38,133 nt of DNA, from contig DYNF01000036.1 in NCBI GenBank assembly GCA_020721205.1, forward strand, positions 1 to 38,133. Direction: 5' to 3'. This DNA is from Prochloron sp. SulCav_FS08_3_32_3330. GTDB taxonomy: Bacteria > Cyanobacteriota > Cyanobacteriia > Cyanobacteriales > DYNF01. Position numbers and translations under genes: made by a program. Shown here piece by piece: positions 3,487-37,891 of the stretch (its first letter is position 1; every line of letters starts with the position of its first letter). The notes below the pieces were generated by a model. That model saw only the letters and a program-made list of their open reading frames with translations, did not search any database and was not told where the DNA came from.

Positions 3487-3702
3487 TTGTTGTTGGGCTT
3501 TAGCACTATTTCCATTAATTATTTAGTGCTAAAGCACAACAACGAACAATTTATTAGTGCTAAAGCACAACAACGAACAATTATTTAGTGCTAAAGCACA
3601 ACAACGAACAATTTATTAGTGCTAAAGCACAACAACGAACAATTATTCGTGCTAAAGCACAACAACGAACAATTATTAGTGCTAAAGCACAACAACGAAC
3701 AA
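3487..3702. repeat. Six-copy 30/31-bp tandem repeat with inverted leading copy
   Basis: Units built on gtgctaaagcacaacaacga begin at 3525, 3556, 3587, 3618, 3648 and 3678 (periods 31, 31, 31, 30, 30). A single inverted copy precedes them at 3487-3510 (tttgttgttgggctttagca). Each unit contains a small palindrome gtgct-aa-agcac. The array fills the gap between two convergent genes and stops two bases before the stop codon of the minus-strand gene. The inverted copy can pair with any forward copy, so it may act as a hairpin barrier between the two transcripts. Confidence 0.9.
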
Positions 3703-3703
3703 T

Positions 3704-6688
3704 TTAGATAGACTGTAATTCTTTTTGCAATTGTATTACTTGAGCCGAAACAATGGGATTAGAATCATTTTTTAACATCGGTAATAACTCTAAACAAATA
3801 CGAGGACTAGCTTCCTTCAAATACCATAATACCGCCTCTCTTACTACATTATTCGGATGACGTAAACAGACTAAAGTCGCTTCTTTCGTAATAGTCCATC
3901 GTTGCGATCGCCCTAAATGAAAACAACAGGCTAAAGTCCAGTCTGATAGAAAATGACGAAAAGTAATTAAATGACGGAGGCGATCGCTCGGTTTCATTGG
4001 TTTATAAGGTACAATTGTATCAATAACCGCCAATTTAGTTAAATTAAGATTTAAACCTCCATCTAATAATTCTAAAATTAAAGCTTTTTGAGGTAAATCT
4101 AAAGTATTATCTAAAAGTTCTAACCCTAAAGCGATACTATTTTGAGAATCAGAGTTTAAATTTAAAAGTGCCGCTTGAATCGAAGATAAAGGATATAAAA
4201 ATTGCATTAAAAAGAAACAACGCTCTAAAAGATCTTTTTGCATACCCATTAAAGCAGAATTAAGTAAATCCACTTCTTCACAAGAAACTCGATCATTATT
4301 TAAGTCTAATCTTGCTCCATAAATTTGTCCTAATAATAATAATTCTTGATCAATTAAAGTTTCAATCCCACTACGTCCTAGTTGATCTAAAACTGTTTCA
4401 ATACCCATTTCACCTCCAGTTTTTAAGATGATTCGTAAAATATTACGTCTTGCTAATCCCCAACTACTCATTAGTTGATTAACTAATTCATTAAAGGCTT
4501 CAGGCGTAGCAATTTCTGCCATTAATCCCCACATTTGAGACCGAATAAAATCAGATTGACGAGAATCTATTGCCAAATTTATTAAAAATGGTAAGGCATC
4601 ATTTCCCATATTAATTAAAGTTTGTCTGGCAACTTCTCTTGTAGATTTGTAACTCAATCCTTTTAATAAAGAAGGATAATAATTATTGATTCTTTTTGCA
4701 CCAATAACTTCTAATAAAGCGGATCTTACTTTTGCCGATTCATCTTGAAGTAATGAGGGAATATATTTAATAATAAATTCTAGATCCGTAATATCTTTAA
4801 GAGCTTGAGTCCCTACAATACGCTCTCTTTCCTTCGGTGAAAGTAACATTTTTTCTAAAGAGGCTTCTGCTTGGCTACTTTCTTGAGCATTCCCTTGACG
4901 AAACAGTAAACTAGCGGCTGTACCCCTCACTACGGCATCTACACGCTCATTTAAGTAAGGCTTAAGGATTTTTGGATCCAGATCCGTTTGAGATAACCAT
5001 AAATAACGTAAAGCTAATCCTAACACTTCAATGGGAGGTTTTTTCTCTACTAAACGCTGAACTTCTAAACGATAAGTAGTAGTAGGATTTTTTAACATCG
5101 CTGTTAAACTCTGTTTTTGTAAAGAAGGAGATAAAGTCGTTAAAAGAGGAGATAAAACCTCCCCTGCATTCATCGGATCAATACGCTCTAAAAGTTGAAT
5201 ACAAGAGCGTTGATCCGCTTCTGTGGTTTTCTGAGCTAAAGATTCTAAAATTGCCCGTTTAAAGGCTTTTAAATCCACATCCCCAAAACCTAAACGCCCT
5301 TTCTCCGCCCCATCTACTAATAAACTCACATAATTTGATCTTAAAAACCATGCACTTAACGCCCAAACCGTCGAAAAAACCACAATAGCTCCGATAAAGA
5401 TTCCTCCCTGTAATTGTCTTAATGCTTCGATATTTTTGTCAGGAAAACTCCATTTTAAGAGTTTGATTCCGACTAAAATTGTGATGCCCGTTAAACCCGT
5501 CGCCAAAGGTTGGGCAACTCCCTGTACAAAGGTTTGAATTGAACTTCTAATTTCACTAGGGAGGGGTTGAAATAAAAATGGTTCAATACCCGCAATCAGA
5601 GTATAACGTAATAATTCATCAAAAAATCTAAGGATAATTGATCCCCAAAAGATAATTTGAGCGGCGGAAATCATCGCATTTAAGCCTAGAAATTGATTTA
5701 GAATTAGTGTTATTACACCTAATACTGAGAGAGAAATAGGTAAAAACATAGCGGCAACGAATACTCCTAGACGTTCTACGGCTCGACTAGAAACAAACCA
5801 TTGAGTTCCTAACTCTACTAATCCTAAAATACCCGAATAGAGACCTAAAAATTTAGCCATTGCATCGCCACTATATTGAGTATCTAGTTCTCCTAAATAT
5901 TGAAATTCTACTAATAGATATAATACTTCTCCCATGATGAAAAACAGAAACAAAGGAATAATATATTTTCTCAAAGAGCGATCGGTTTTTTTCGAGGCAT
6001 AACTACTTTGTAAATCTTCGATTTCTCTGACGGGGGTATCAGGAAAAGCTTGTTTATATTTTTTAGTTAAATAAAAGAGGATAGTTCCACCAATGATTAT
6101 CATTCCCCCTGCTACCCAGAGAATATTTTTTACTCCAATCAAGGGAATTAAAATTAAAGAAAGGGAAAATCCAGCGATTACATCTCCCATTAATAAACCA
6201 CTAGAAATAATGGGATAAGTACGTTTAATTTCCCGAATATTAAAGATTTGATTTGCCGCTACTTGGGTATTAAGATCGTTGAGAATATCTTGAGCATCTA
6301 GCCATAAACGTAAAACAAAAATTGTAGCAACGGCGATAATTTCTATATTAATGGCAATCCGAAATAGGATTAAAGGTAGAGACATTAATAAGACAATCAC
6401 AATAAAAACTTGTCGTAGGGGAAGGTTTTTTTGTAACCAAGAATAGAGAAAACCTAGCCCCGAACTCATGACGGCACTAGCAATATAAATAAAAGGTAAA
6501 TTTTCTGCACCACATCTTTCTAAAAAGAGTGCTACTACTGCCTGTTCTAACCATACCATGCCGATGGAAGTGATGGTATAGAAGACAAACATTAAAAATG
6601 TGCGCTCTCCTTCTTCAGGGCGTAAGTTAACAAGTTTGAGAATTTTTGAGCGCCAATCATTACGAGGACGAGAACGGATTGTTTTCAT
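3704..6688 (-). CDS. ATP/ADP-carrier-like (NTT/TLC type) membrane protein with C-terminal HEAT repeats
   Basis: The 994-residue protein has two halves. Residues 1-455 hold about twelve hydrophobic segments resembling the nucleotide transporter (NTT/TLC) and major-facilitator folds, starting with the LVNLRPEEGERTF lead-in typical of this group. Residues about 470-994 are soluble helical repeats (e.g. DAVVRGTAASLLFR, SAKVRSALLEVIGA, NNVVREAVLWYLKEAS) of the HEAT type, which usually serve as protein-docking scaffolds. Similar fusions occur in cyanobacteria; their substrate is not known to me, and true ATP/ADP exchange should not be assumed. The ATG lies three bases after the glycosyltransferase stop, so the two genes are almost certainly translated from one mRNA. 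Envelope or thylakoid location is inferred. Confidence 0.75.
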   Translation of the reverse strand: MKTIRSRPRNDWRSKILKLVNLRPEEGERTFLMFVFYTITSIGMVWLEQAVVALFLERCGAENLPFIYIASAVMSSGLGFLYSWLQKNLPLRQVFIVIVLLMSLPLILFRIAINIEIIAVATIFVLRLWLDAQDILNDLNTQVAANQIFNIREIKRTYPIISSGLLMGDVIAGFSLSLILIPLIGVKNILWVAGGMIIIGGTILFYLTKKYKQAFPDTPVREIEDLQSSYASKKTDRSLRKYIIPLFLFFIMGEVLYLLVEFQYLGELDTQYSGDAMAKFLGLYSGILGLVELGTQWFVSSRAVERLGVFVAAMFLPISLSVLGVITLILNQFLGLNAMISAAQIIFWGSIILRFFDELLRYTLIAGIEPFLFQPLPSEIRSSIQTFVQGVAQPLATGLTGITILVGIKLLKWSFPDKNIEALRQLQGGIFIGAIVVFSTVWALSAWFLRSNYVSLLVDGAEKGRLGFGDVDLKAFKRAILESLAQKTTEADQRSCIQLLERIDPMNAGEVLSPLLTTLSPSLQKQSLTAMLKNPTTTYRLEVQRLVEKKPPIEVLGLALRYLWLSQTDLDPKILKPYLNERVDAVVRGTAASLLFRQGNAQESSQAEASLEKMLLSPKERERIVGTQALKDITDLEFIIKYIPSLLQDESAKVRSALLEVIGAKRINNYYPSLLKGLSYKSTREVARQTLINMGNDALPFLINLAIDSRQSDFIRSQMWGLMAEIATPEAFNELVNQLMSSWGLARRNILRIILKTGGEMGIETVLDQLGRSGIETLIDQELLLLGQIYGARLDLNNDRVSCEEVDLLNSALMGMQKDLLERCFFLMQFLYPLSSIQAALLNLNSDSQNSIALGLELLDNTLDLPQKALILELLDGGLNLNLTKLAVIDTIVPYKPMKPSDRLRHLITFRHFLSDWTLACCFHLGRSQRWTITKEATLVCLRHPNNVVREAVLWYLKEASPRICLELLPMLKNDSNPIVSAQVIQLQKELQSI

Positions 6689-12635: not shown

Positions 12636-12752
12636 AGGGGCATGACATCAGTAACTTTTGTTACTCATCATTAAATCATCAAATGTCATGCCCAACCCCA
12701 TCAGTAACTTTTGTTACTCATCATTAAATCATCAAATGTCATGCCCAACCCC
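12636..12752. repeat. 53-bp direct duplication ending in gtcatgccc
   Basis: The block starting catcagtaacttttgttact occurs at 12646-12698 and again directly at 12699-12751 with no visible change. Each contains the small palindrome agtaac-tttt-gttact and ends in atgtcatgcccaacccc, the inverted partner of ggggcatgacat at 12637-12648. This looks like a hairpin element whose right half was duplicated. Confidence 0.8.
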
Positions 12753-12760
12753 ACCAATAA

Positions 12761-13210
12761 CTATTAAATAATCATCATTAATTTTAGTTTATTTTTGATT
12801 TAATTATGTGGTGGGGCATGGCATTTGTTAAGTTAATGGTTAGAATAATAAATTAATGATGCCATGCCCCTACATTAAATTCAATCGCTTTAGCCGATTT
12901 TAGCGATTAACTATTAAATAATCATCATTAATTTTAGTTTATTTTTGATTTAATTATATGGTGGGGCATGGCATTTGTTAAGTTAATGGTTATAATCAAA
13001 ATTAAATGATGCCATGCCCCTACATTTAATTTAATCGCTTTAGCCGATTTTAGCGATTAACTATTAAATAATCATCATTAAATTGAGTTTATTTTTGATT
13101 TAATTATGTGGTGGGGCATGGCATTTGTTAAGTTAATGGTTATAATCAAAATTAAATGATGCCATGCCCCTACATTAAATTTAATCGCTTTAGCCGATTT
13201 TAGCGATTGG
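12761..13210. repeat. Three 150-bp tandem repeats containing ggggcatggcat hairpins
   Basis: Units start at 12761, 12911 and 13061 with an exact 150-base period and only scattered differences. Each unit has an AT-rich lead (ctattaaataatcatcatta), an inverted repeat whose arms are ggggcatggcat and atgccatgcccc about 40 bases apart, and a tail with aatcgct...agcgatt arms. No reading frame of note spans a unit. The near identity implies recent amplification by unequal crossing-over or slippage. The roughly 970 bases between the kinase gene start and the first antitoxin are filled by this and the preceding repeats; I see no gene there. Confidence 0.92.
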
Positions 13211-21051: not shown

Positions 21052-24000
21052 ATGACAACTAATTTTAATTCTAAAACGGAACAACTTTTAACTCTTTATA
21101 AAGAAGGGCAACGTAATTTTAAAGGCTTTAGTTTAACTCAAGGTAATTTAGCCCAATCTAAACTTCCTTTAATTGCGATGGAAGATGCAAATTTAGAAGA
21201 AATTAATTTTGAAAAGGCTAATTTAATGGGGGCAACTTTTAATCGCTCTAATTTAAAAAATGCTAATTTAAAAAATGCTAATTTAATGGGGGCAGACTTA
21301 GTAAAAGTCGAATTAGAAAACTCAAATTTATCAAAAGCTTTAGTAAGTGGTGCAAATTTAAGTGCTTCTAATTTGCAATATTCTGATTTAAGTGGGGCGA
21401 CTTTTGTGGGATCGGATCTAACAGCTACGGATCTAAGAGGTGCTAATTTAAGAGGTACAAATTTTAAAGGTGCTAATTTAAGAGGTGCTAATTTTTTAGA
21501 AACAAATCTTGATTATGCAATTTTAGATTATTCTGATCTCAAACATTCAATTATTCCTGAGGAGTTACGAGAAAAAATATTTTCTCCTCGGCAAGATGAG
21601 CCGAAAAATAGTTATTTAAAGCCGATATTTTATGAAGATGATTCTAATTATAATCAGTCTGAAAATAATGATCATGAGGAGAATACTTATCAGATAGAAA
21701 CGGAAAATAATCAAGCTGAAAATGAAGATAATCAAGCTCAATTTTTCTCATCAGAAGATCATCAGAATTTAACCAGTAGTGATGAAGTTTATAATAGTTA
21801 TTTGTCTGAATTTGGAGAAAATACTCAAGCTAATGAATTACAAATAGATAATTTAGATAGTTCCTTTTTGGAATTTGATGATCATGAATATGAGCAAGAT
21901 CAAGGAGATCAAGCGGTTATTTTTCCTCAAAATTTAGAAGATTTAGATAGTTTATTAGATGATGATTATTTCCCTCAAGAAAATGAGGATTACTCTTTAT
22001 CAGAATTAGGAGAAAATGATGATCAAAGTCAATCTAATGTGACAGATGATTTAATCGAAAATAATCCTTTAGGGACTATTTTAGAGACTTATAAATGGTT
22101 TGATGACTCTGAAGAAATTGAAGAAACTGACAATAATATTTTAGAAATTAGTGCGTCGTTTTCAGATGTTAATTATAATGAAAATGCTGAAAATTTAGAT
22201 AGTATAGAGCATTTAAATGAGGGATTAAATAAAGATAATAATGGGGAAGAAAAAGACAATAATTTCTTTTCTGAAAGAGAAGAAAATTTAACTCAAAACT
22301 TGTCTAATGGGGCAGAAAATTATGAGTTAGGAAATATTTTAGATGATGTTTTAAATTCTGATCATGAATTGTTAAATAAAATTGAAGAAACTGAATTTAA
22401 TTATGTAGAAATGAGTGATCCATTTTTAGAAATTCCTCCTACAGAAAATTTAATAAATGAGGATAATAATGAGGAAGAAAAAGACAATAATTTATTTCCT
22501 GAAAGAGAAGAAAATTTAACTCAAAACTTGTCTAATGGGGCAGAAAATTATGAGTTAGGAAATATTTTAGATGATATTTTAGATCCGGATGATCAATGGT
22601 TTAATGAGTCTGAAGAAATTGAAGTTACTATGTTAGAAATGACTGATCCATTTTTAGAAATTTCTCAAAATTTAGATAACATAGATCATTTAGATAGCAT
22701 AGATAATTTAGATAATATAGATCATTTAGATAGCATAGATCATTTAGAGGATGATCAAGAATGGTTTAAGGAATCAGAAGAAATTGAAGTTAATAATGTA
22801 CAACTTAGTGATTCATTTTTAAAAGTAGCTGAAAATGAGAATGAGTTAAATATTAATCTTGCTGAAAATTTAGATAATTTATTAAATGAAGATAGGGTTT
22901 TAGAAAATCAAATTAAGGAGTTAAATCAAGAAATTAATGAGTTTTTGATAGAAGAAAGGGAAACAGAAAATATTAACGATTTAGAAGCTTATAATAATAA
23001 AGCAACTTTTATCTTAAATGATAGTGAAAAAGATTTACCTGAAATTGAGGATAATTTAGATTCAAGTTTTCTTGAAGAAAATGAAGAAATATTGTCTCAA
23101 TCTTTTACTGAAAATGAAACGGAAAATGTTAATAATTTCTTTGATTTAGAAAGGGATGATCAAGAAATAATTGAAAAACCTACTTTAATAGATGAACCAG
23201 ATTTAAGTTTATCTTTAGATGATAATTTAATCGAAAATGAAGAAATATCGTCTTTATTTTTTACGGAATCTATTAATAAGAGTGAAGAAATAATTGAAAA
23301 ACCTACTTTAATAGATGAACCAGATTTAAGTTTATCTTTAGATGATAATTTAATCGAAAATGAAGAAATATCATCTTTATTTTTTACTGAAGCTATTAAT
23401 AAGAGTGAAGAAAAAGTCGAAAAAGCTACTTTAATAGATGAACCAGATTTAAGTTTATCTTTAGATGATAATTTAATCAAAAATGAAGAAATATCGTCTT
23501 TATTTTTTACTGAAGATATTAATAAGAGTGAAGAAAAAGTCGAAAAAGCTACTTTAATAGATGAACAAGATTTAGGTTTATCTTTAGATGATAATTTAAT
23601 CGAAAATGAAGAAATATCCTCTTTATTTTTTACTGAAGATATTAATAAGAGTGAAGAAAAAGTCGAAAAAGCTACTTTAATAGATGAACAAGATTTAGGT
23701 TTATCTTTAGATGATAATTTAATCGAAAATGAAGAAATATCGTCTTTATTTTTTACTGAAGATATTAGTAATAGTGAGGAAATAATTGAAAAAGCTACTT
23801 TAATAGATGAACAAGATTTAGGTTTATCTTTAGATGATAATTTAATCGAAAATGAAGAAATATCCTCTTTATTTTTTACTGAAGATATTAGTAATAGTGA
23901 TGATCATGACACAACAAACGAAAATGATGACTTTTTCGCAATGCCAACTTCTTCTTATTTAGGGATTTCTTTTGGTGAAGAAAGTAATGAAAATGAATCA

Positions 24001-25350
24001 GAATTGGTTAATAATGTACTCTCTAGTGGATATCTAACAGAAATAGAAGATTTAGATAATAATGATAATTCTCAAATGTTAATAGATGCAAACTTTTCTT
24101 CAAATCAAATTTCTCAAATAGAGGAAATATTACCCGAAATTTCTGAATTAGAATCTCAAGAAGAAATAGATCAAAATATTGAAATTGAACAAAATGAAGA
24201 ACTAGAAAAAGAAAAATTAGCAAAAGAAAAAATGGCAAAAACTACCTTTATTCAAAAGTTGAATAATCCGGTAATTGAGACGATTCAATCTGTGTTAAAT
24301 AATCGAGTTCAATATCATTTCAAAAAACAAGTTTTAGAAGTTTATAAAAATCAATGTGTCATTACTCAATGCAATATTTTACCATTATTAGAAGTAGTAA
24401 TGATCGATCCTTTAGCACAAGAAATGCAGGATCATCCTTCTAATGGCTTGGTTTTAAGACGAGATTTAAGTGTACTTTTTGAATTATATTTATTAGCAAT
24501 TAATCCTTCTGATTTTAGTATTATCATTTCTCCGACGGTTAAAAATTCAGAATATCAGGCTTTAAATGGTCAAAAAATAATGTTACCTTCTTCCGAATCT
24601 GTACAACCCAATTCTAAATTTTTAACTGCTCATCTTAAAAATTGTTCATGGTGTAAATTAACTTTAGATCAATTAGCTAAACAATCCCAAAATCAAGGAT
24701 TAACTTCTAGTAAGTTATCAAATAATACTTTAAAAAATCAGGATAAATTAACAGAAAAAAATAATTCTTTAGCAATGGTTAAAAATTATTTAACTTCTAA
24801 AACGGAACAACCTCGATGGCTTAATCTAGGATTAGCAGGAATTACGGTTTTTTCCTTATTAGGATTATTTTTATTGAATAATTCATCTATTAATAAAAAA
24901 TCTGGAGTTGTTACTTCTAATAATGAAGATTTAAAAACTATAGATATTCAACTAGGAGATTTAATTTATGAAGATAATGGTTTAATTAATCAGGAAAATA
25001 CTTATTTTTCTTTACCTATTCTCACTCATTTAGGGGTTAATACTGGTAATATTAAACCAGAAGGTAATCTGATTAAATTAGAATTTTCAGAAACTCTCAA
25101 AACTAAATTTATTGATTTTAAAATCAAAGATAAAATTTATCAAAAAGAAGGATTAATTATTGAAATAACCTCCACTTCTTACATTCCAATTAAATTTATT
25201 CAAAAACTTGGACTTAAGGAATCAACTATTCCTGAAAATCAAACTATTACCTATAAAGATGTTACCTATATAAAAACATCTGAATTGAAAAAATTAGGAA
25301 TTAAAATTGGTTGGGATGCCCAAAGTAGCACTCTTTCTTTAAATAATTAA
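21052..25350 (+). CDS. Large pentapeptide-repeat protein with acidic repeats, degenerate HNH-like domain and stalk-like C-terminus
   Basis: The 1432-residue protein has five parts. Residues about 35-170 are pentapeptide repeats (ANLMGATFNRSNLKNANLKN), a right-handed beta-helix. Residues ~185-1060 are highly acidic and asparagine-rich, with a duplicated ~40-residue block (around REENLTQNLSNGAENYELGN) and six 41-residue repeats. Residues ~1080-1205 resemble the HNH_2 nuclease fold (VYKNQCVITQCNILPLLEVV, HPSNGLVLRRDLSVLFEL, LLAINP) but the usual A-H-I is replaced by VMID, so catalysis is doubtful. A membrane segment lies at ~1258-1276, followed by a beta-rich end like copper amine oxidase N-terminal/stalk domains. 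Topology suggests a large cytoplasmic part with a small periplasmic tail. Function unknown. Confidence 0.75.
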   Translation: MTTNFNSKTEQLLTLYKEGQRNFKGFSLTQGNLAQSKLPLIAMEDANLEEINFEKANLMGATFNRSNLKNANLKNANLMGADLVKVELENSNLSKALVSGANLSASNLQYSDLSGATFVGSDLTATDLRGANLRGTNFKGANLRGANFLETNLDYAILDYSDLKHSIIPEELREKIFSPRQDEPKNSYLKPIFYEDDSNYNQSENNDHEENTYQIETENNQAENEDNQAQFFSSEDHQNLTSSDEVYNSYLSEFGENTQANELQIDNLDSSFLEFDDHEYEQDQGDQAVIFPQNLEDLDSLLDDDYFPQENEDYSLSELGENDDQSQSNVTDDLIENNPLGTILETYKWFDDSEEIEETDNNILEISASFSDVNYNENAENLDSIEHLNEGLNKDNNGEEKDNNFFSEREENLTQNLSNGAENYELGNILDDVLNSDHELLNKIEETEFNYVEMSDPFLEIPPTENLINEDNNEEEKDNNLFPEREENLTQNLSNGAENYELGNILDDILDPDDQWFNESEEIEVTMLEMTDPFLEISQNLDNIDHLDSIDNLDNIDHLDSIDHLEDDQEWFKESEEIEVNNVQLSDSFLKVAENENELNINLAENLDNLLNEDRVLENQIKELNQEINEFLIEERETENINDLEAYNNKATFILNDSEKDLPEIEDNLDSSFLEENEEILSQSFTENETENVNNFFDLERDDQEIIEKPTLIDEPDLSLSLDDNLIENEEISSLFFTESINKSEEIIEKPTLIDEPDLSLSLDDNLIENEEISSLFFTEAINKSEEKVEKATLIDEPDLSLSLDDNLIKNEEISSLFFTEDINKSEEKVEKATLIDEQDLGLSLDDNLIENEEISSLFFTEDINKSEEKVEKATLIDEQDLGLSLDDNLIENEEISSLFFTEDISNSEEIIEKATLIDEQDLGLSLDDNLIENEEISSLFFTEDISNSDDHDTTNENDDFFAMPTSSYLGISFGEESNENESELVNNVLSSGYLTEIEDLDNNDNSQMLIDANFSSNQISQIEEILPEISELESQEEIDQNIEIEQNEELEKEKLAKEKMAKTTFIQKLNNPVIETIQSVLNNRVQYHFKKQVLEVYKNQCVITQCNILPLLEVVMIDPLAQEMQDHPSNGLVLRRDLSVLFELYLLAINPSDFSIIISPTVKNSEYQALNGQKIMLPSSESVQPNSKFLTAHLKNCSWCKLTLDQLAKQSQNQGLTSSKLSNNTLKNQDKLTEKNNSLAMVKNYLTSKTEQPRWLNLGLAGITVFSLLGLFLLNNSSINKKSGVVTSNNEDLKTIDIQLGDLIYEDNGLINQENTYFSLPILTHLGVNTGNIKPEGNLIKLEFSETLKTKFIDFKIKDKIYQKEGLIIEITSTSYIPIKFIQKLGLKESTIPENQTITYKDVTYIKTSELKKLGIKIGWDAQSSTLSLNN
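23164..23901 (+). repeat. Six in-frame 123-bp repeats (41 residues each)
   Basis: Within the pentapeptide-repeat gene, six consecutive 123-base units encode a 41-residue block with the core ATLIDEQDLGLSLDDNLIE and NEEISSLFFTE. Units 1-2 use EKPTLIDEPDLSL, unit 3 is intermediate and units 4-6 use EKATLIDEQDLGL, showing stepwise duplication. Almost all differences fall at a few sites, so expansion is recent. Confidence 0.95.
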
Positions 25351-30071: not shown

Positions 30072-31016
30072 TTAAAGTGCTTCAGCACCCGCTACCACTT
30101 CTAATAATTCTTGAGTAATCGTAGCTTGTCTGGCTTTGTTGTAAGACAAAGTAAGAGCTTTCATCAAATCAGAAGCGTTTTCAGAGGCATTATTCATCGC
30201 TGTCATTCTCGCCGCTAACTCACTAGCCGCAGATTCTTGTAATGCTCTTAATAACTGATTATTGAGGTATAAAGGTAATAAAGTATCTAAAATTTGAACT
30301 GGATCCTGTTCATAAATCATATCCGCAGGAAATGTTGCTACAGGTAAGGAGATTTTTTCCCGTTCCACTTTAAACTGACCTTCTCTGACAATTAAACGGA
30401 AAATTTCATCATCTTCTGGCTCTAAACCTTGTAAAGTTAAAGGTAAAAGAGTTTGAATGACAGGTTTTGAACTAATTAAGGACATGAAACGAGTATAAAC
30501 TAACTCTACTCGATCTACTTTTTCTGATAAGAATAAGCTTAATAATTCATCCGCAATTTCCGCCGCTTGTGAGGCAGAAGGAATTTGCTCTAAACCTGTA
30601 TAATTTTCGTCAATCGGTTGATTACGACGCTCAAAATATTGAGTCGCTTTTCTCCCTACTAAGACAAATTTATAATCTAAACCTTGGCTTTTTAATTCTT
30701 TAGCTCTATTTTCGGCGGCACGAATAACATTAGAATTGTAACCACCACATAAGCCCCGATCGCCTGAAACCACTAAAAGAGCCACACATTTAACTTCTCT
30801 TTGTTTTAATAAAGGAAGGTTAGCATCTTCAAATTTTAAGCGATTTTTTAAACCATAGAGAACTTGAGCTAAAGCATCAGCAAAAGGGCGAGTCGCAATA
30901 ACTTGCTCTTGCGCCCGACGTACTTTAGCCGCCGCCACTAGACGCATTGCCTCAGTAATTTTCTTGGTATTTTTAACCGAATCAATCCGATCTCGAATTG
31001 CTTTAAGATTTGCCAT
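30072..31016 (-). CDS. atpG: ATP synthase gamma subunit
   Basis: Gamma is the central rotor shaft of F1. The 314-residue protein starts [24 protein letters not shown] and ends [14 protein letters not shown], both diagnostic. It includes the insertion of about 35 residues (around [18 protein letters not shown]) found in cyanobacterial and plastid gamma, here without the redox cysteine pair of plants. ATG 31016 gives the standard length; the frame extends seven residues further only into a repeat. In cyanobacterial naming this is atpC. It is the last gene of the operon and is followed by a strong terminator. The 232-base spacer before it holds repeats, unusual for adjacent subunits. Confidence 0.97.
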
Positions 31017-31020
31017 ATTT

Positions 31021-31088
31021 AATAATTCAAAATTCAAAATTCAAAATTCAAAATTTAAAATTTTTAATAATTCAAAATTCAAAATTAA
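31021..31088. repeat. Heptamer repeat (aaaattc) in the atpA-atpG spacer
   Basis: The run attcaaaattcaaaattc, continued for about nine imperfect heptamers, begins just before the atpG start codon on its 5' side. On the minus strand it reads as gaattttgaattttga steps and pushes any atpG Shine-Dalgarno into repeat sequence. Confidence 0.85.
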
Positions 31089-31187
31089 CTTAACAATCAC
31101 CAAAGCAATTTTCTTTTTAAATTTTGATTTGTTGAACTTTTCAAATTTTAAATTTTTAGGAACAAGTAACTCATAATATTAGTTCGT

Positions 31188-31241
31188 AGTTGGGCTTTAG
31201 CCCTAAAAAAACTAAATTTTTAAGAGTGCTAAAGCACAACA
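31188..31241. repeat. Inverted pair of gctttagc/gctaaagc elements in the atp operon
   Basis: The arms gttgggctttagccct (31188-31203) and gtgctaaagcacaac (31227-31241) are a degenerate inverted pair of the same element that forms the tandem array at 3525-3700. The position is between atpA and atpG. Confidence 0.7.
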
Positions 31242-31248
31242 ACAAACC

Positions 31249-32793
<1,545 letters not shown>

Positions 32794-32821
32794 TTAATTT
32801 GATCAAACAAAATTCAAAAGT

Positions 32822-32852
32822 AGCTATCAGCTATCAGCTATCAGCTATCAGC
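32822..32852. repeat. Heptamer repeat (agctatc) x4 in the atpH-atpA spacer
   Basis: Four perfect agctatc units lie shortly upstream of atpA on the coding strand of the operon. A second, shorter heptamer run (actgttc) is at 32996-33011. Confidence 0.85.
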
Positions 32853-32890
32853 CCATAACTAAAAAACTGAACTTTTGAACTTTTTAAAAT

Positions 32891-32966
32891 TTAGGTAGAG
32901 ACTTTATATATAACGTCTCTACAAAAATTTAGGTACAGACGTTATATATAACGTCTCTACAAAAAA
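32891..32966. repeat. Duplicated palindrome ttatatataacgtctctac in the atp operon
   Basis: Two tandem 38-base copies, 32891-32927 and 32929-32966, share the core atataacgtctctacaaaaa. In the second copy agacgttatatataacgtct is a perfect 20-base palindrome; in the first, gtagagac and gtctctac form the arms. Both would fold in the mRNA between the delta and alpha genes. Confidence 0.85.
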
Positions 32967-33012
32967 CTAAAAACTGTTTACTGGTAACTAAAAACTGTTC
33001 ACTGTTCACTGT

Positions 33013-33567
33013 CTAAGCATTGCCTAAAGTTAAACTTAAACGACGAAGTTGACCTCTAATACTAGCGTCAATAACTTGAGAGCCAACTTTAATAATGACT
33101 CCGCCAATGATATCAGGATCAATTATGGCTTTAATTTCCACACTTTTCGCCTTAGTCATTGCCTTAACTTTATTCACGATCGCCTCAGTTTGATCTGAAC
33201 TTAACTCCTTAGTAGAAGTAACCTCAGCCAAAACAGTTTGATTAAGTTTGCGTAAAAGATTGAGATATTGAGAAATAATAGCAGGAAGAAAAACGATCCG
33301 TCGTTTATCTACCAATAACATTAAAAAGTTAATCAGATAAGTATTAGCACCTTTACCTAAAACCTTTTTAATTACAGATTTTTTATCATCTGATTTAATA
33401 ATAGGATTAGTAATAAAATCTCTAAAATCTGATGATTCTTCTAATAAATTTTCCATATCTCGACAGTCTTGCCCAAAAGCTTCCGTAAGTTTATGAGCGT
33501 CAGCCACAGACATTAAAGCCTGAGCGTAGGGTTCAGCTATTTGAGAGTTAATTAATGTACTACTCAT
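33013..33567 (-). CDS. atpH: ATP synthase delta subunit
   Basis: Delta connects the peripheral stalk to the top of F1 (the equivalent of mitochondrial OSCP). The 184-residue length is normal, with the N-terminal helical bundle ([16 protein letters not shown]...) and the C-terminal signature [28 protein letters not shown]. Its ATG overlaps the last base of the b-subunit stop codon, so translation is coupled. Cyanobacterial texts name this gene atpD. Confidence 0.97.
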
Positions 33568-34094
33568 TAAAGCACTCCTCCTAAGTTCGCAATACTACGA
33601 TCAATTAGTTTTTGTTGTGCCTTCTCATCCAAAATATTACCTAACTGAGCTGACGATTTTTCGAGAGCTAAAGCTACCACCATAAGTCGCAGTTGGGTAA
33701 TTACTTTTTCCTGTTCCGAGTCAAGATCCTTTCCTGCGGCTTCTTTCATCCGAGCAAGTTCTTCTTCACCCTTAACTAAAAGTTCTTGTTTGAGGACTTC
33801 AGCTCTCGCAGTAGCTTCCTTGCGGATTTGTTCTGCGATCGCATGAGCTTGATCGAGTTTTTGTTGTTGCGTTACTAAAGCACTCGCCGCATTTTTTTGT
33901 TTGCTTTCAGCTTCAGTAATCTCCTCCTCAATTCTAGCTTTGCGTTCTTCAAGGATATTAGTAATTAACTTTTTACCAAAGAAAAACAGCACCCCCACTA
34001 AAATTAAAAGGTTAATCAGGTTGGCTTCAAATATATTAGTATTGATGCCAAAACCCGCAGAATGTGTTGCCAGTATCAATGTTTTCCCGATCAT
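33567..34094 (-). CDS. atpF: ATP synthase b subunit
   Basis: Subunit b forms one half of the peripheral stalk. The protein (175 residues from ATG 34094) has one N-terminal membrane segment ([19 protein letters not shown]) followed by a long charged coiled coil ([18 protein letters not shown] onward). The b-type rather than b' identity is shown by the [15 protein letters not shown] lead. A TTG at 34100 would add two residues, matching relatives that begin MG, but there is no Shine-Dalgarno for either. Paired with b' upstream, as in photosynthetic bacteria and plastids. Confidence 0.93.
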
Positions 34095-34150
34095 TCCCAA
34101 ATCAATTAAATTGTGATTGGTTAATTTATGGTTTTAATTGTTAGCTATCA

Positions 34151-34179
34151 GTAGGAACTTAATCCGATTAAGTCCCTAC
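34151..34179. repeat. Inverted repeat in the b'-b spacer
   Basis: The arms gtaggaacttaat (34151-34163) and attaagtccctac (34167-34179) form a 13-bp stem with one mismatch and a 3-base loop. It lies between the two stalk-subunit genes and could be an mRNA-processing or stability hairpin. Confidence 0.7.
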
Positions 34180-34256
34180 AGGAGGAAACATTTATACAGT
34201 AGTTAGTTATACAGTCAGCAAAAAGTAACTAATTAAGATTAATTACTAATTACCAA

Positions 34257-34688
34257 TTATTTAACTAACTCTGCCCCTAGTAGTTTTTCGAGAATTTGAC
34301 GACTTAAAGAATCTACCTGTTGTTCAAGAGTAGCCATAGCCGACTGTTTTTGTGTCTCGATTTCTTGCTGTACCTGTTCTTTTTGAATCTGAGCTAATTT
34401 CTGAGCCTCTGCCAATTTATCAGCAGTGATCTTTTTCGCCTCAGCCTGAGCAGTAGCAATAACTTCTTGGGACTGTTTCCGAGCGCCAACTAACTGTTTT
34501 TCGTATTCCTGAGTTAATTGTTTAGTCTGTGCTAAACGTTGACGGGCATCTTTTTCCTTTGATTGAATATAATCTGCCCGTTCATCTAAAACCTTACTTA
34601 AAGGAGTGTAAAACACCTTATTCAGTAAGAACATTAGGATTAAAAATTGCACCGCCATTAAAGGCGCAGTGGCATCAAAATCAAACAT
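34257..34688 (-). CDS. atpF2: ATP synthase b' subunit
   Basis: Subunit b' is the second, diverged peripheral-stalk chain found in cyanobacteria and plastids. The 143 residues contain the start [29 protein letters not shown] with its membrane segment, then a heptad-rich Gln/Lys/Glu coiled coil ending in [11 protein letters not shown]. This DATAPLMA opening is diagnostic of b'. ATG start. In cyanobacterial naming it is atpG. Confidence 0.95.
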
Positions 34689-34860
34689 TGTTTATAGATC
34701 CAGTCCAAACTTAAGATCATTAAATAAAATTTAGGACAAGGTGACAACTTAATTCGGTTCAAAATTTAAACTCAAAATTTAAAATTCAAAATAATTATTG
34801 AATTTCAAAAATGTTATAAATTTAGAAAATTTAACATTGCCCCATTGTCCCCATCATCAA

Positions 34861-35157
<297 letters not shown>

Positions 35158-35246
35158 TTACAATGGTTAGTAAAGCATAAATTGACCCTAATGAACCATT
35201 TGTTTTTAAACAAAAGAGATGACAATATTAATCAATCATGATTAAA

Positions 35247-36002
35247 TTAATGTCCATGCTCCTCATCGTGACCCTCAATCGCCTCATGTATATAAGCTCC
35301 AGCAAGGGTAGCAAATACTAACGCTTGAATCGCACTGGTAAATAGACCTAATGCCATTAAAGGTAAAGGAATAAACAGAGGAACGAGAAAAACCAACACT
35401 GCTACCACTAACTCATCCGCCAAAATGTTACCAAAAAGACGGAAACTTAGAGAAAGAGGCTTAGTGAAATCTTCTAAAATTTTAATCGGTAAAAGGATGG
35501 GTATCGGCTCAATATAATTAGCGAAATATCCTAAACCCTTTTTGCTAAATCCTGCATAAAAATAAGCTAAGGATGTTAACAAAGCCAAAGCCACGGTGGT
35601 GTTAATATCATTCGTTGGAGCGGCTAATTCACTTCCGGGAATTGCGATCAATTTCCAAGGAATTAATGCCCCCGACCAGTTAGAAACGAAAATAAATAAG
35701 AACAAAGTGCCGATGAAAGGCAACCAAGGTCTATATTCTTTCTCACCGAGTTGATTTTTGGCTAAATCTCTCAGAAATTCCAAAACGTATTCCATTAAAT
35801 TTTGAATACCTTGGGGAACTCTTTGAATATTTTTTGTTGCTAAAATTGAAGCAATAAGCAAAACGGAAATGACAAACCATGAAGTCATGAAAACTTGACC
35901 ATGCACAGTAAAACTGCCAATTTTCCAGATAAAATGTTTACCTACTTCAATGGTAGCAAGATGAAAAGAATTGATCACGCTCAACCCCTCTAAACTTTCC
36001 AT
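35247..36002 (-). CDS. atpB: ATP synthase a subunit
   Basis: Subunit a provides the half-channels for protons in Fo. The 251-residue protein has the essential arginine R188 in [15 protein letters not shown], the preceding EDFTKPL helix, and the C-terminal [20 protein letters not shown] membrane segment; the histidine/acidic tail EGHDEEHGH is usual. ATG at 36002. Legacy cyanobacterial name atpI. A second, diverged subunit a gene lies at 37142-37891 on the other strand. Confidence 0.96.
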
Positions 36003-36085
36003 TCGGTGATTTTTACCTAAAGATATTAAGAAAAAAAATGGGTTTTTTCTTACACTTAAAAAGCCAGTTTTTCTGTTAAAATTAT

Positions 36086-36529
36086 CTATTCTTTACTTTC
36101 AAACAAAGTGGTTTGAATAGTATAGATAATAATGGCAATTTTATAAGTGAGAAATCCCAAAAAAACAGGTAAAACATGAAGTTCTTGCACTTTAGATGCA
36201 ATAATAATTAACCCTACAAAAATAGCTAATCTTTTTCCATTAGAAATACCTGTTTCTTCTCCTAGTCGCTCCACATCTTTGCCTAACAATTTAAGATATA
36301 CTAGACCCACTATTGCCCCTAAAAGATAATTTAAGGACCAATTAAGAGAATAAGTAAATCCTACTATAAGGGCGATGATCCCTGTCAAAATCAGAGTTAT
36401 CACTAATAAATAATTTTGCAGATGATAAAACTCCGCCATTGAATTATCAATAACACCCTTTGAAGGAGCATCACTAGGATTCACCTCCGGTGCTAGACTA
36501 TCTTCAATAGGCTTTTCAGGTTGATTCAC
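36086..36529 (-). CDS. atp1: ATP synthase assembly protein Atp1/CGL160-like (subunit I)
   Basis: The 147-residue protein is the first gene of the operon. It has a polar N-terminus and four membrane segments ([67 protein letters not shown]). This matches the Atp1 protein preceding atpB in cyanobacteria, related to the plastid factor CGL160, which helps assemble the c-ring and couple Fo to F1. It is not a subunit of the finished enzyme. The [12 protein letters not shown] loop is conserved in the family as I recall it. ATG start. Confidence 0.88.
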
Positions 36530-36832
36530 GTTACTAGGAACTAAACTAATAAATAGTTAATGTGATATTTAATGATTTACCTGTACTTATGGACATAAGA
36601 TACGATTTGTAAACCATGAGACATCATATCATGTAACAGTCACAAAAATTTAAAAAGTCTAAAATCTTATTTTTGGAAATCTCGTTTTTTAAAATATGGT
36701 ATATAATTCTGATTTTTTAGTAAATTATTACTAATATAATCCATCATCGGATAAAATTGCTCTAATTAATCTTATTTAAACAGAGTCAAATCTTAAATCT
36801 TATCTCTCATTATATATTTTTACTAAAAATCA
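36530..36832. other. Divergent spacer between the atp operon and atpR
   Basis: This 303-base AT-rich spacer must hold the promoters of both the canonical operon (-) and the atpR-atpB unit (+). A tataat hexamer is at 36702-36707 on the + strand, without a well-spaced -35. No gene, degenerate atpD/atpC sequence or strong repeat is visible. Confidence 0.5.
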
Positions 36833-37135
36833 ATGATTAATAACATTTGGCTATCTTTATTTTTAGCTTTTATCATAGGAATAACCACAGGTATATTTTA
36901 TTTTGCCGGATTATGGTTAACAGTAAAACGAGTAACCAAAATAACTAAACCTTATTTACTATTAATCCTTAGTTTCTTTATTAGATTAAGCATAATTTTA
37001 CCCATATTTTATGTAGTATTTAAAGATAATAGCTTAAATATTTTACCCTGTGTAGGGGGATTTTTCTTAGTAAGATTTATCTCTTTAAATATAGTTTCTC
37101 AAAAACCAGATCAACAAAGATTAGAAAAGAGTTAA
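36833..37135 (+). CDS. atpR: N-ATPase subunit AtpR
   Basis: AtpR is a small membrane protein specific to N-ATPases, the laterally spread F-type enzymes proposed to pump Na+ or H+; it is thought to help assemble or hold the c-ring glutamates via a conserved arginine. The 100-residue protein has three membrane segments, the GIFYFAGLWLTVKRV motif, and R51 in SFFIRLSIILP, all standard for the family. ATG 36833 follows a long AT-rich leader with no strong Shine-Dalgarno. It is seven bases before the N-type atpB start. The usual upstream genes atpD, atpC and atpQ are absent; the canonical ATP synthase operon lies there instead, pointing away. Confidence 0.88.
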   Translation: MINNIWLSLFLAFIIGITTGIFYFAGLWLTVKRVTKITKPYLLLILSFFIRLSIILPIFYVVFKDNSLNILPCVGGFFLVRFISLNIVSQKPDQQRLEKS

Positions 37136-37141
37136 AACCTT

Positions 37142-37891
37142 ATGTATAAATTTGAACTACCGGATCAAATTATCTTTTGGCAGTGGAATTTTATTACCAT
37201 TAATGCCACCTTAATTTTTACATGGATTGTGATGACAATAATGGTAATTGGATCATGGTATATTACCCGTAAACTTTCCCCATCTACTCGTTTATCTGAT
37301 GGTCAAAATTTCTTAGAAATAATCGTTTTAGGGATTGGACAACAGATTAAAGATATTTCAGGAAGATCACCGAAAAAATTTATCGCTTTTATCGGTACAA
37401 TCTTTTTATTTATTGCCTTTTCTAATATTTTAAGTATTATTCCCGAGCCTTTATTTCGTCCTCCCACTGCTTCTTTATCCACTACCTCCGCCTTAGCTTT
37501 TTGTGTATTTATAGCAGTTCCCTTATATGGGATTCAAACCCAAGGTTTAAAAAATTATTTAAAACAATATTTAGAGCCTACACCTTTTATGTTACCTCTC
37601 AATATTATCTCAGAATTTTCTCGTACTTTAGCCTTAGCAATGCGATTATTTGGCAATGTTTTAAGTGGGACAATGATCGTCGGTTTATTAATTGCTTTAA
37701 CCCCCATTTTTGTCCCCATAATTATGCAATTATTTGGCTTATTAACAGGAGTGATTCAAGCTTATATTTTTGCTATTTTAGCAATGGTTTTTATCGCTTC
37801 AGGGATGGATAATCAAATTATGAATGATAAGATTAAACAGCAAGATCAGGATTTAGAAATAGAGGAAGAAAATGATATTTTTACTATCTAA
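37142..37891 (+). CDS. atpB: N-ATPase-type subunit a
   Basis: A second Fo subunit a, clearly diverged from the housekeeping one at 35247-36002. The 249 residues include five to six membrane segments, the essential arginine R168 in TLALAMRLFGNVLSGTMI, the SEFSRTLALAM helix, and the GVIQAYIFAILAMVFI ion-channel helix typical of N-ATPases. It appears full length and undamaged. It follows atpR by six bases, the order seen in the N-ATPase operon (atpDCQRBEFAG). The next genes expected, atpE, atpF, atpA and atpG, do not appear in the 240 bases left, so its partners are missing here. It may depend on distant genes or on the canonical enzyme. Confidence 0.9.
   Translation: MYKFELPDQIIFWQWNFITINATLIFTWIVMTIMVIGSWYITRKLSPSTRLSDGQNFLEIIVLGIGQQIKDISGRSPKKFIAFIGTIFLFIAFSNILSIIPEPLFRPPTASLSTTSALAFCVFIAVPLYGIQTQGLKNYLKQYLEPTPFMLPLNIISEFSRTLALAMRLFGNVLSGTMIVGLLIALTPIFVPIIMQLFGLLTGVIQAYIFAILAMVFIASGMDNQIMNDKIKQQDQDLEIEEENDIFTI

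What the first reader, a model, noticed from the sequence alone, without database searches (positions are those of the whole stretch)
36833..37891. Stranded N-ATPase pair atpR-atpB beside the canonical ATP synthase operon
N-ATPases are normally encoded as one block (atpDCQRBEFAG). Here only atpR and the N-type subunit a are present, both intact with their key arginines (R51, R168). atpD/atpC/atpQ are missing upstream and atpE/F/A/G are not found in the 240 bases downstream. They sit head-to-head with the housekeeping operon. An intact a subunit with its dedicated helper but no visible ring or F1 might supply an alternative stator to the resident c-ring (a hybrid, possibly Na+-responsive enzyme), or may be a relic of a lost or relocated operon.
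Basis: partly seen in the sequence, partly recalled or inferred. Interest (0 to 1): 0.66.

Follow-up and report, generated by a model that had tools for sequence, protein, structure and literature searches.

The report
Cyanobacterial N-type ATPase with scattered genes
The two 'stranded' genes are one piece of a second, N-type rotary ATPase whose genes, normally one operon, are spread over five places in this cyanobacterium; eight of the nine parts are present and intact, and only the catalytic beta subunit was not found in the draft genome.

Summary
The atpR-atpB pair is real, intact and N-type. The window is a whole contig that ends 242 bases after atpB, so it could not show what else the genome holds. 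A search of the 4.73-Mb draft finds six more N-type genes at four other places: atpC-atpQ, atpE-atpF, atpA alone and atpG alone. Each is open-reading, sits among unrelated genes and scores above its curated cut-off. Only atpD (beta) was not found, by two searches. A dedicated c-ring, stalk, alpha, gamma and epsilon therefore exist, and a subunit a lent to the resident c-ring is unnecessary. In trees of A, B, C, F and R, genes from four of the five places share one sister genome (supports 0.88-0.98), which points to one operon that broke up. Among 52 genomes of the order with N-type atpB, about half have a broken or rearranged operon; this one is the most dispersed and the only one where atpB and atpE are not neighbours. 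Most likely the pair supplies the stator a subunit and its helper to an N-type ATPase assembled from dispersed genes. Whether beta lies in an assembly gap, is lost, or is replaced by the housekeeping beta is open.

The parts
36833..37135 (+). atpR, N-ATPase AtpR subunit (helper of the a/c interface), 100 aa, Arg51 invariant
   Evidence: PF12966 78.6 bits, TIGR03165 64.9 bits over cut-off; R51 in 51/51 aligned sequences
37142..37891 (+). N-type atpB, Fo subunit a, 249 aa, essential Arg168
   Evidence: TIGR03306 317.4 bits over cut-off 302.1; R168 in 52/52 aligned sequences; only copy in the genome besides the housekeeping one
36530..36832 (.). 303-base divergent intergenic region between housekeeping atpI and N-type atpR; would hold the start signals for both directions if each is transcribed from here
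   Evidence: coordinates; the promoter scan of the region gives no more sites than chance, so no promoter is claimed
30072..36529 (-). housekeeping ATP synthase operon atpI-B-E-F'-F-delta-A-G, complete apart from atpD-atpC, which are on contig C207; context, not part of the N-type set

Best explanation
The pair is one fragment of a dispersed N-type (N1No) rotary ATPase. An ancestral atpDCQRBEFAG operon broke up and its pieces moved to separate chromosomal places, keeping eight genes: C-Q, R-B, E-F, A and G. The separately made subunits would assemble in trans. AtpR helps assembly and ion handling at the a/c contact, and subunit a (Arg168) with the two-carboxylate c-ring (Glu30, Glu63) moves Na+ or H+ while F1 hydrolyses ATP. 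Shown: presence, integrity, N-type identity, common origin of most pieces, and dispersal. Inferred: expression, assembly, ion, direction, and the source of beta (most likely an N-type atpD in an assembly gap).
For: N-type genes on five contigs of one 99.4%-complete, 0.7%-contaminated genome: R-B on C91, A on C62 (818 bits, cut-off 750.5), E-F on C6 (143 against 130.85; 231.6 against 224.7), G on C107 (338.7 against 282.35), C and Q on C125 (136.7 against 100.1; 129.8 against 46.7). Apart from R-B, the genes lie at least 2.7 kb from contig ends with unrelated genes between, so contig breaks cannot explain the separation. In single-gene trees own A, B, C, F and R are sister to the same genome G006 (supports 0.88-0.98), E likewise with 0.51; root-to-tip distances are at the 46th to 73rd percentile. 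dN/dS 0.13-0.47 against G006 with dS near saturation for most genes. Dispersal recurs in relatives, including one 6.36-Mb single-contig genome (second A 1.04 Mb from its D-C-Q-R-B-E-F) and one 6.39-Mb contig (A 70 kb from B).
Against: N-type beta was not found with TIGR03305 or with a relative's beta protein, though 49 of 52 N-atpB genomes have it over cut-off. No expression or biochemical data. dN/dS over this distance averages over time before and after the break-up. The tree of G does not resolve its own position, and Q was not put in a tree.
Confidence: 0.66

Rival explanations
1. Hybrid enzyme: N-type beta is truly lost and the housekeeping beta (contig C207) serves both enzymes, so N-type alpha, gamma and epsilon work with housekeeping beta on the N-type Fo.
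For: No N-type beta in the assembly at E up to 1; housekeeping beta is 56% identical to an N-type beta.
Against: The N-type alpha keeps all 26 of 26 positions that are invariant in N-type alphas and differ from its own housekeeping alpha, so it shows no shift toward the housekeeping partner (weak test). The draft has 209 contigs, and in relatives atpD is often found alone, away from the other genes, so a single gene in a gap is easy to miss.
Confidence: 0.14
2. Relic: the N-ATPase lost its catalytic beta recently, is no longer functional, and the remaining genes have not yet decayed.
For: Missing beta. A published precedent exists for a half-set read as possibly degenerate, in Chlorobaculum tepidum (PMC4154653).
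Against: Eight of eight genes are open, with all invariant residues checked present and ordinary root-to-tip distances.
Confidence: 0.16
3. One reading: AtpR and N-type a act as an alternative stator on the housekeeping c-ring.
For: Physical neighbourhood of the pair and the housekeeping operon; no housekeeping gene showed up in the N-type pieces mapped from the other 51 genomes.
Against: A dedicated N-type c and b subunit are present. The neighbourhood may be chance relocation.
Confidence: 0.03
4. Assembly artefact: a contiguous operon misassembled or broken at contig ends.
For: The draft has 209 contigs and the window ends 242 bases after atpB.
Against: C-Q, E-F, A and G are internal to their contigs, with unrelated genes next to them; similar dispersal occurs in a single-contig genome.
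Confidence: 0.01

Closest known systems
N-ATPase operon atpDCQRBEFAG of cyanobacteria (Picosynechococcus plasmids, Acaryochloris pREB4, Aphanothece halophytica)
   Same: Same N-type genes, AtpR with its arginine, two-carboxylate c subunit, long b subunit; in addition to a complete housekeeping enzyme
   Different: There one contiguous operon (Picosynechococcus; Acaryochloris and Aphanothece: PMC8949462); here five separate pieces and no N-type beta in the assembly
Split N-ATPase of Nitrosococcus halophilus and half-locus of Chlorobaculum tepidum (PMC4154653)
   Same: N-type genes not in one block, or incomplete
   Different: Those are a locus split in half (without atpR) and a partial locus; here five pieces with atpR and eight of nine genes kept
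Housekeeping cyanobacterial ATP synthase, split into two gene groups
   Same: Rotary ATPase assembled from genes at separate places (atpD-atpC apart from the rest)
   Different: Two pieces rather than five; the housekeeping enzyme has delta and two b-type subunits

Membership tests
N-type ATPase (N-ATPase) | N-type subunit a with AtpR | tested here: met
   TIGR03306 and PF12966 over cut-off
N-type ATPase (N-ATPase) | N-type alpha, gamma, epsilon, b, c and AtpQ in the genome | tested here: met
   all over the curated cut-offs of the alt_F1F0 models or TIGR02230
N-type ATPase (N-ATPase) | N-type beta (atpD) | tested here: inconclusive
   not found in the draft with TIGR03305 or a relative's protein; the assembly is a draft in 209 contigs, so absence from the organism is not proven
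N-type ATPase (N-ATPase) | genes in one block atpDCQRBEFAG (the usual arrangement) | tested here: not met
   five blocks; but about half of the N-atpB genomes of this order are also broken or rearranged, so the block is usual rather than defining
N-type ATPase (N-ATPase) | no separate delta subunit; b subunit with a C-terminal extension of more than 100 aa | tested here: met
   N-type b is 251 aa and its residues 167-246 match a delta model weakly; no delta gene seen next to the five pieces
N-type ATPase (N-ATPase) | found in addition to a housekeeping F- or A-type enzyme | tested here: met
   complete housekeeping set on C91 and C207
N-type ATPase (N-ATPase) | two-carboxylate ion site in the c subunit | tested here: met
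   Glu30 and Glu63, each invariant in 48/48 N-type c subunits aligned; Ser64, Thr65 and Tyr68 follow
N-type ATPase (N-ATPase) | ion specificity and ATP-driven pumping | not testable with these tools
   Na+ reported for Aphanothece, H+ for the Burkholderia c-ring (PMC5376962)

The most novel reading that the evidence does not exclude
N-type beta is really absent and the housekeeping beta is shared, so that two rotary ATPases with separate rotors, stators and alpha subunits use one common catalytic subunit.
Probability: 0.12. Interest if true: 0.75.

Novelty: new variant of a known kind. Interest (0 to 1): 0.42.

Why it matters
N-ATPases are described as one-block, laterally moved operons. Here, and in milder form in about half of the relatives that carry one, the block falls apart while the genes that remain stay intact. 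If they are used, a rotary ATPase that must not mix its parts with the housekeeping one is assembled from separately placed genes, which raises the question how the two sets are kept apart. It also warns that an 'incomplete' N-ATPase locus seen in one place need not be a degenerate one. The missing beta makes a direct test possible of whether two rotary ATPases can share a catalytic subunit.

Tried and rejected
The scan of genome contigs with AtpB returned only distant matches and no close cyanobacterial N-type relative, probably because the patterns were strict; it gave nothing used here. Three region requests failed on a length rule and were repeated. No other genome of the same family turned up among the relatives searched, so close-strain conservation or within-species dN/dS could not be tested. 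The promoter scan gave chance-level hits. The contig end was compared only with the other own-genome pieces held at that time (C62, part of C6, C107 and C207) and showed nothing shared. Considered and rejected: contig-break artefact; contamination (most pieces share the same sister genome); hybrid with the resident c-ring. Structure prediction was not run, since it would not separate the rivals.

Full report
atpR (36833-37135, +) and an N-type atpB (37142-37891, +) are intact and of the N type by curated models. Arg51 and Arg168 are present and invariant in 51 and 52 aligned sequences. They lie head-to-head with the housekeeping operon, 303 bases from its atpI-like gene. The window is the whole contig C91 of a draft genome of 4.73 Mb in 209 contigs, 99.36% complete and 0.71% contaminated, and it ends 242 bases after atpB.

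The rest of the N-type set is in the same genome. atpA is alone on C62 between a CobW/HypB-type gene and a DedA-like membrane-protein gene. atpE-atpF are on C6, following a HIT-domain gene and genes that look like phycobilisome linkers. atpG is alone on C107 between an M16-like peptidase gene and an NAD(P)H dehydrogenase subunit 2 gene. atpC and atpQ are on C125 after an M24 peptidase gene (methionine-aminopeptidase-like). All pass the N-type or gene-specific curated cut-offs. Neighbours not scanned are named from reading their translations. Apart from the window's pair, these genes lie at least 2.7 kb inside their contigs, so contig ends do not explain the separation.

N-type beta is the exception. 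TIGR03305 and a relative's N-type beta protein find only the housekeeping beta on C207 (besides the related alphas and one chance-level match); it scores 838 on the housekeeping model and 600 on the N-type model, below the cut-off of 752. The housekeeping epsilon follows it. Beta does not stand in front of atpC on C125, where the preceding gene is the M24 peptidase 127 bases upstream.

Comparison with relatives. Of 389 genomes drawn from the order, 52 (this one included) have N-type atpB; 49 of 52 have N-type beta and 49 of 52 N-type alpha over cut-off. The two other genomes without beta were searched only at a strict E-value, so partial genes there could be missed. The order includes Picosynechococcus: two of the handles match its plasmids in contig length and position. 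With genes joined when closer than 1.5 kb, 23 genomes show one block, 18 two, 6 three, 4 four, and this one five. Some one-block cases are rearranged or lack genes, some two-block cases are probably contig breaks (for example G111), and unseen genes may lie elsewhere, so these are approximate counts. Real dispersal is clear where contigs are long: in a single-contig genome (G169) the second N-type alpha is 1.04 Mb from its D-C-Q-R-B-E-F block, and in G119 alpha is 70 kb from atpB on a 6.39-Mb contig. In the other 51 genomes atpB and atpE stay neighbours; only here are they apart.

Origin and constraint. Single-gene trees put own A, B, C, F and R next to the same genome, G006, with supports of 0.88 to 0.98, and E with 0.51; G is unresolved (no G was located in G006) and Q was not tested. 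This covers four of the five places. G006 has R-B-E-F-A together and D-C on the opposite strand, so the B|E, F|A and D|C breaks most simply happened on the line to this genome (inference). Own terminal branches are long (74th to 98th percentile), as expected for a lone representative of its family, but root-to-tip distances are ordinary (46th to 73rd percentile). dN/dS against G006 is 0.13 to 0.47, with dS near saturation for most genes; this shows constraint over the whole history, not specifically since the break-up.

Mechanism. By its parts this is an N-type rotary ATPase: subunit a with its essential arginine, AtpR, a c subunit with Glu30 and Glu63 followed by Ser64, Thr65 and Tyr68, a long b subunit, alpha with its arginine finger, gamma and epsilon. 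In Aphanothece an N-type enzyme is reported to be Na+-coupled, while the Burkholderia c-ring binds mainly H+ (PMC5376962; PMC8949462), and in Picosynechococcus PCC 7002 N-ATPase transcripts do not rise with salt (PMC3468840). The ion here is therefore left open. Assembly from dispersed genes, use, and the source of beta are inference; the roles of AtpR and the a/c contact rest on general knowledge of the family.

Known or new. A split N-ATPase locus was noted in Nitrosococcus halophilus and a half-locus in Chlorobaculum tepidum, while three cyanobacterial N-ATPases are listed there without such a remark in the passages read (PMC4154653). I found no report of dispersal over five places, or of its recurrence in cyanobacteria, in the searches made, but the original N-ATPase paper and the Aphanothece paper were not held.

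Noticed in passing
L150:11351-12866 (G282): N-type atpA matches in two pieces that overlap by a few bases in an otherwise complete operon of a two-contig genome, and the alpha search lists no full match there: a frameshift or a sequencing error.
   Followed up: no
L138 and L169 (G169): One single-contig genome carries two N-type sets, one complete and one D-C-Q-R-B-E-F with its alpha 1.04 Mb away.
   Followed up: partly
L164, L163, L167, L169: N-type atpF gives two adjacent matches in several genomes, suggesting a duplicated or enlarged b subunit.
   Followed up: no
window 21052-25350: A 1432-aa protein with a pentapeptide-like N-terminal part and a tandem array of about six 123-base (41-aa) near-identical units.
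   Followed up: no
window 12646-13208 and 3523-3706: Tandem arrays with 150-base and 31-base units, not examined further.
   Followed up: no
L007:8236-8512 (contig C62, just upstream of N-type atpA): Short tandem repeats, seen as two overlapping ORFs that repeat the same peptide, directly upstream of the relocated atpA; possibly related to how it moved.
   Followed up: no
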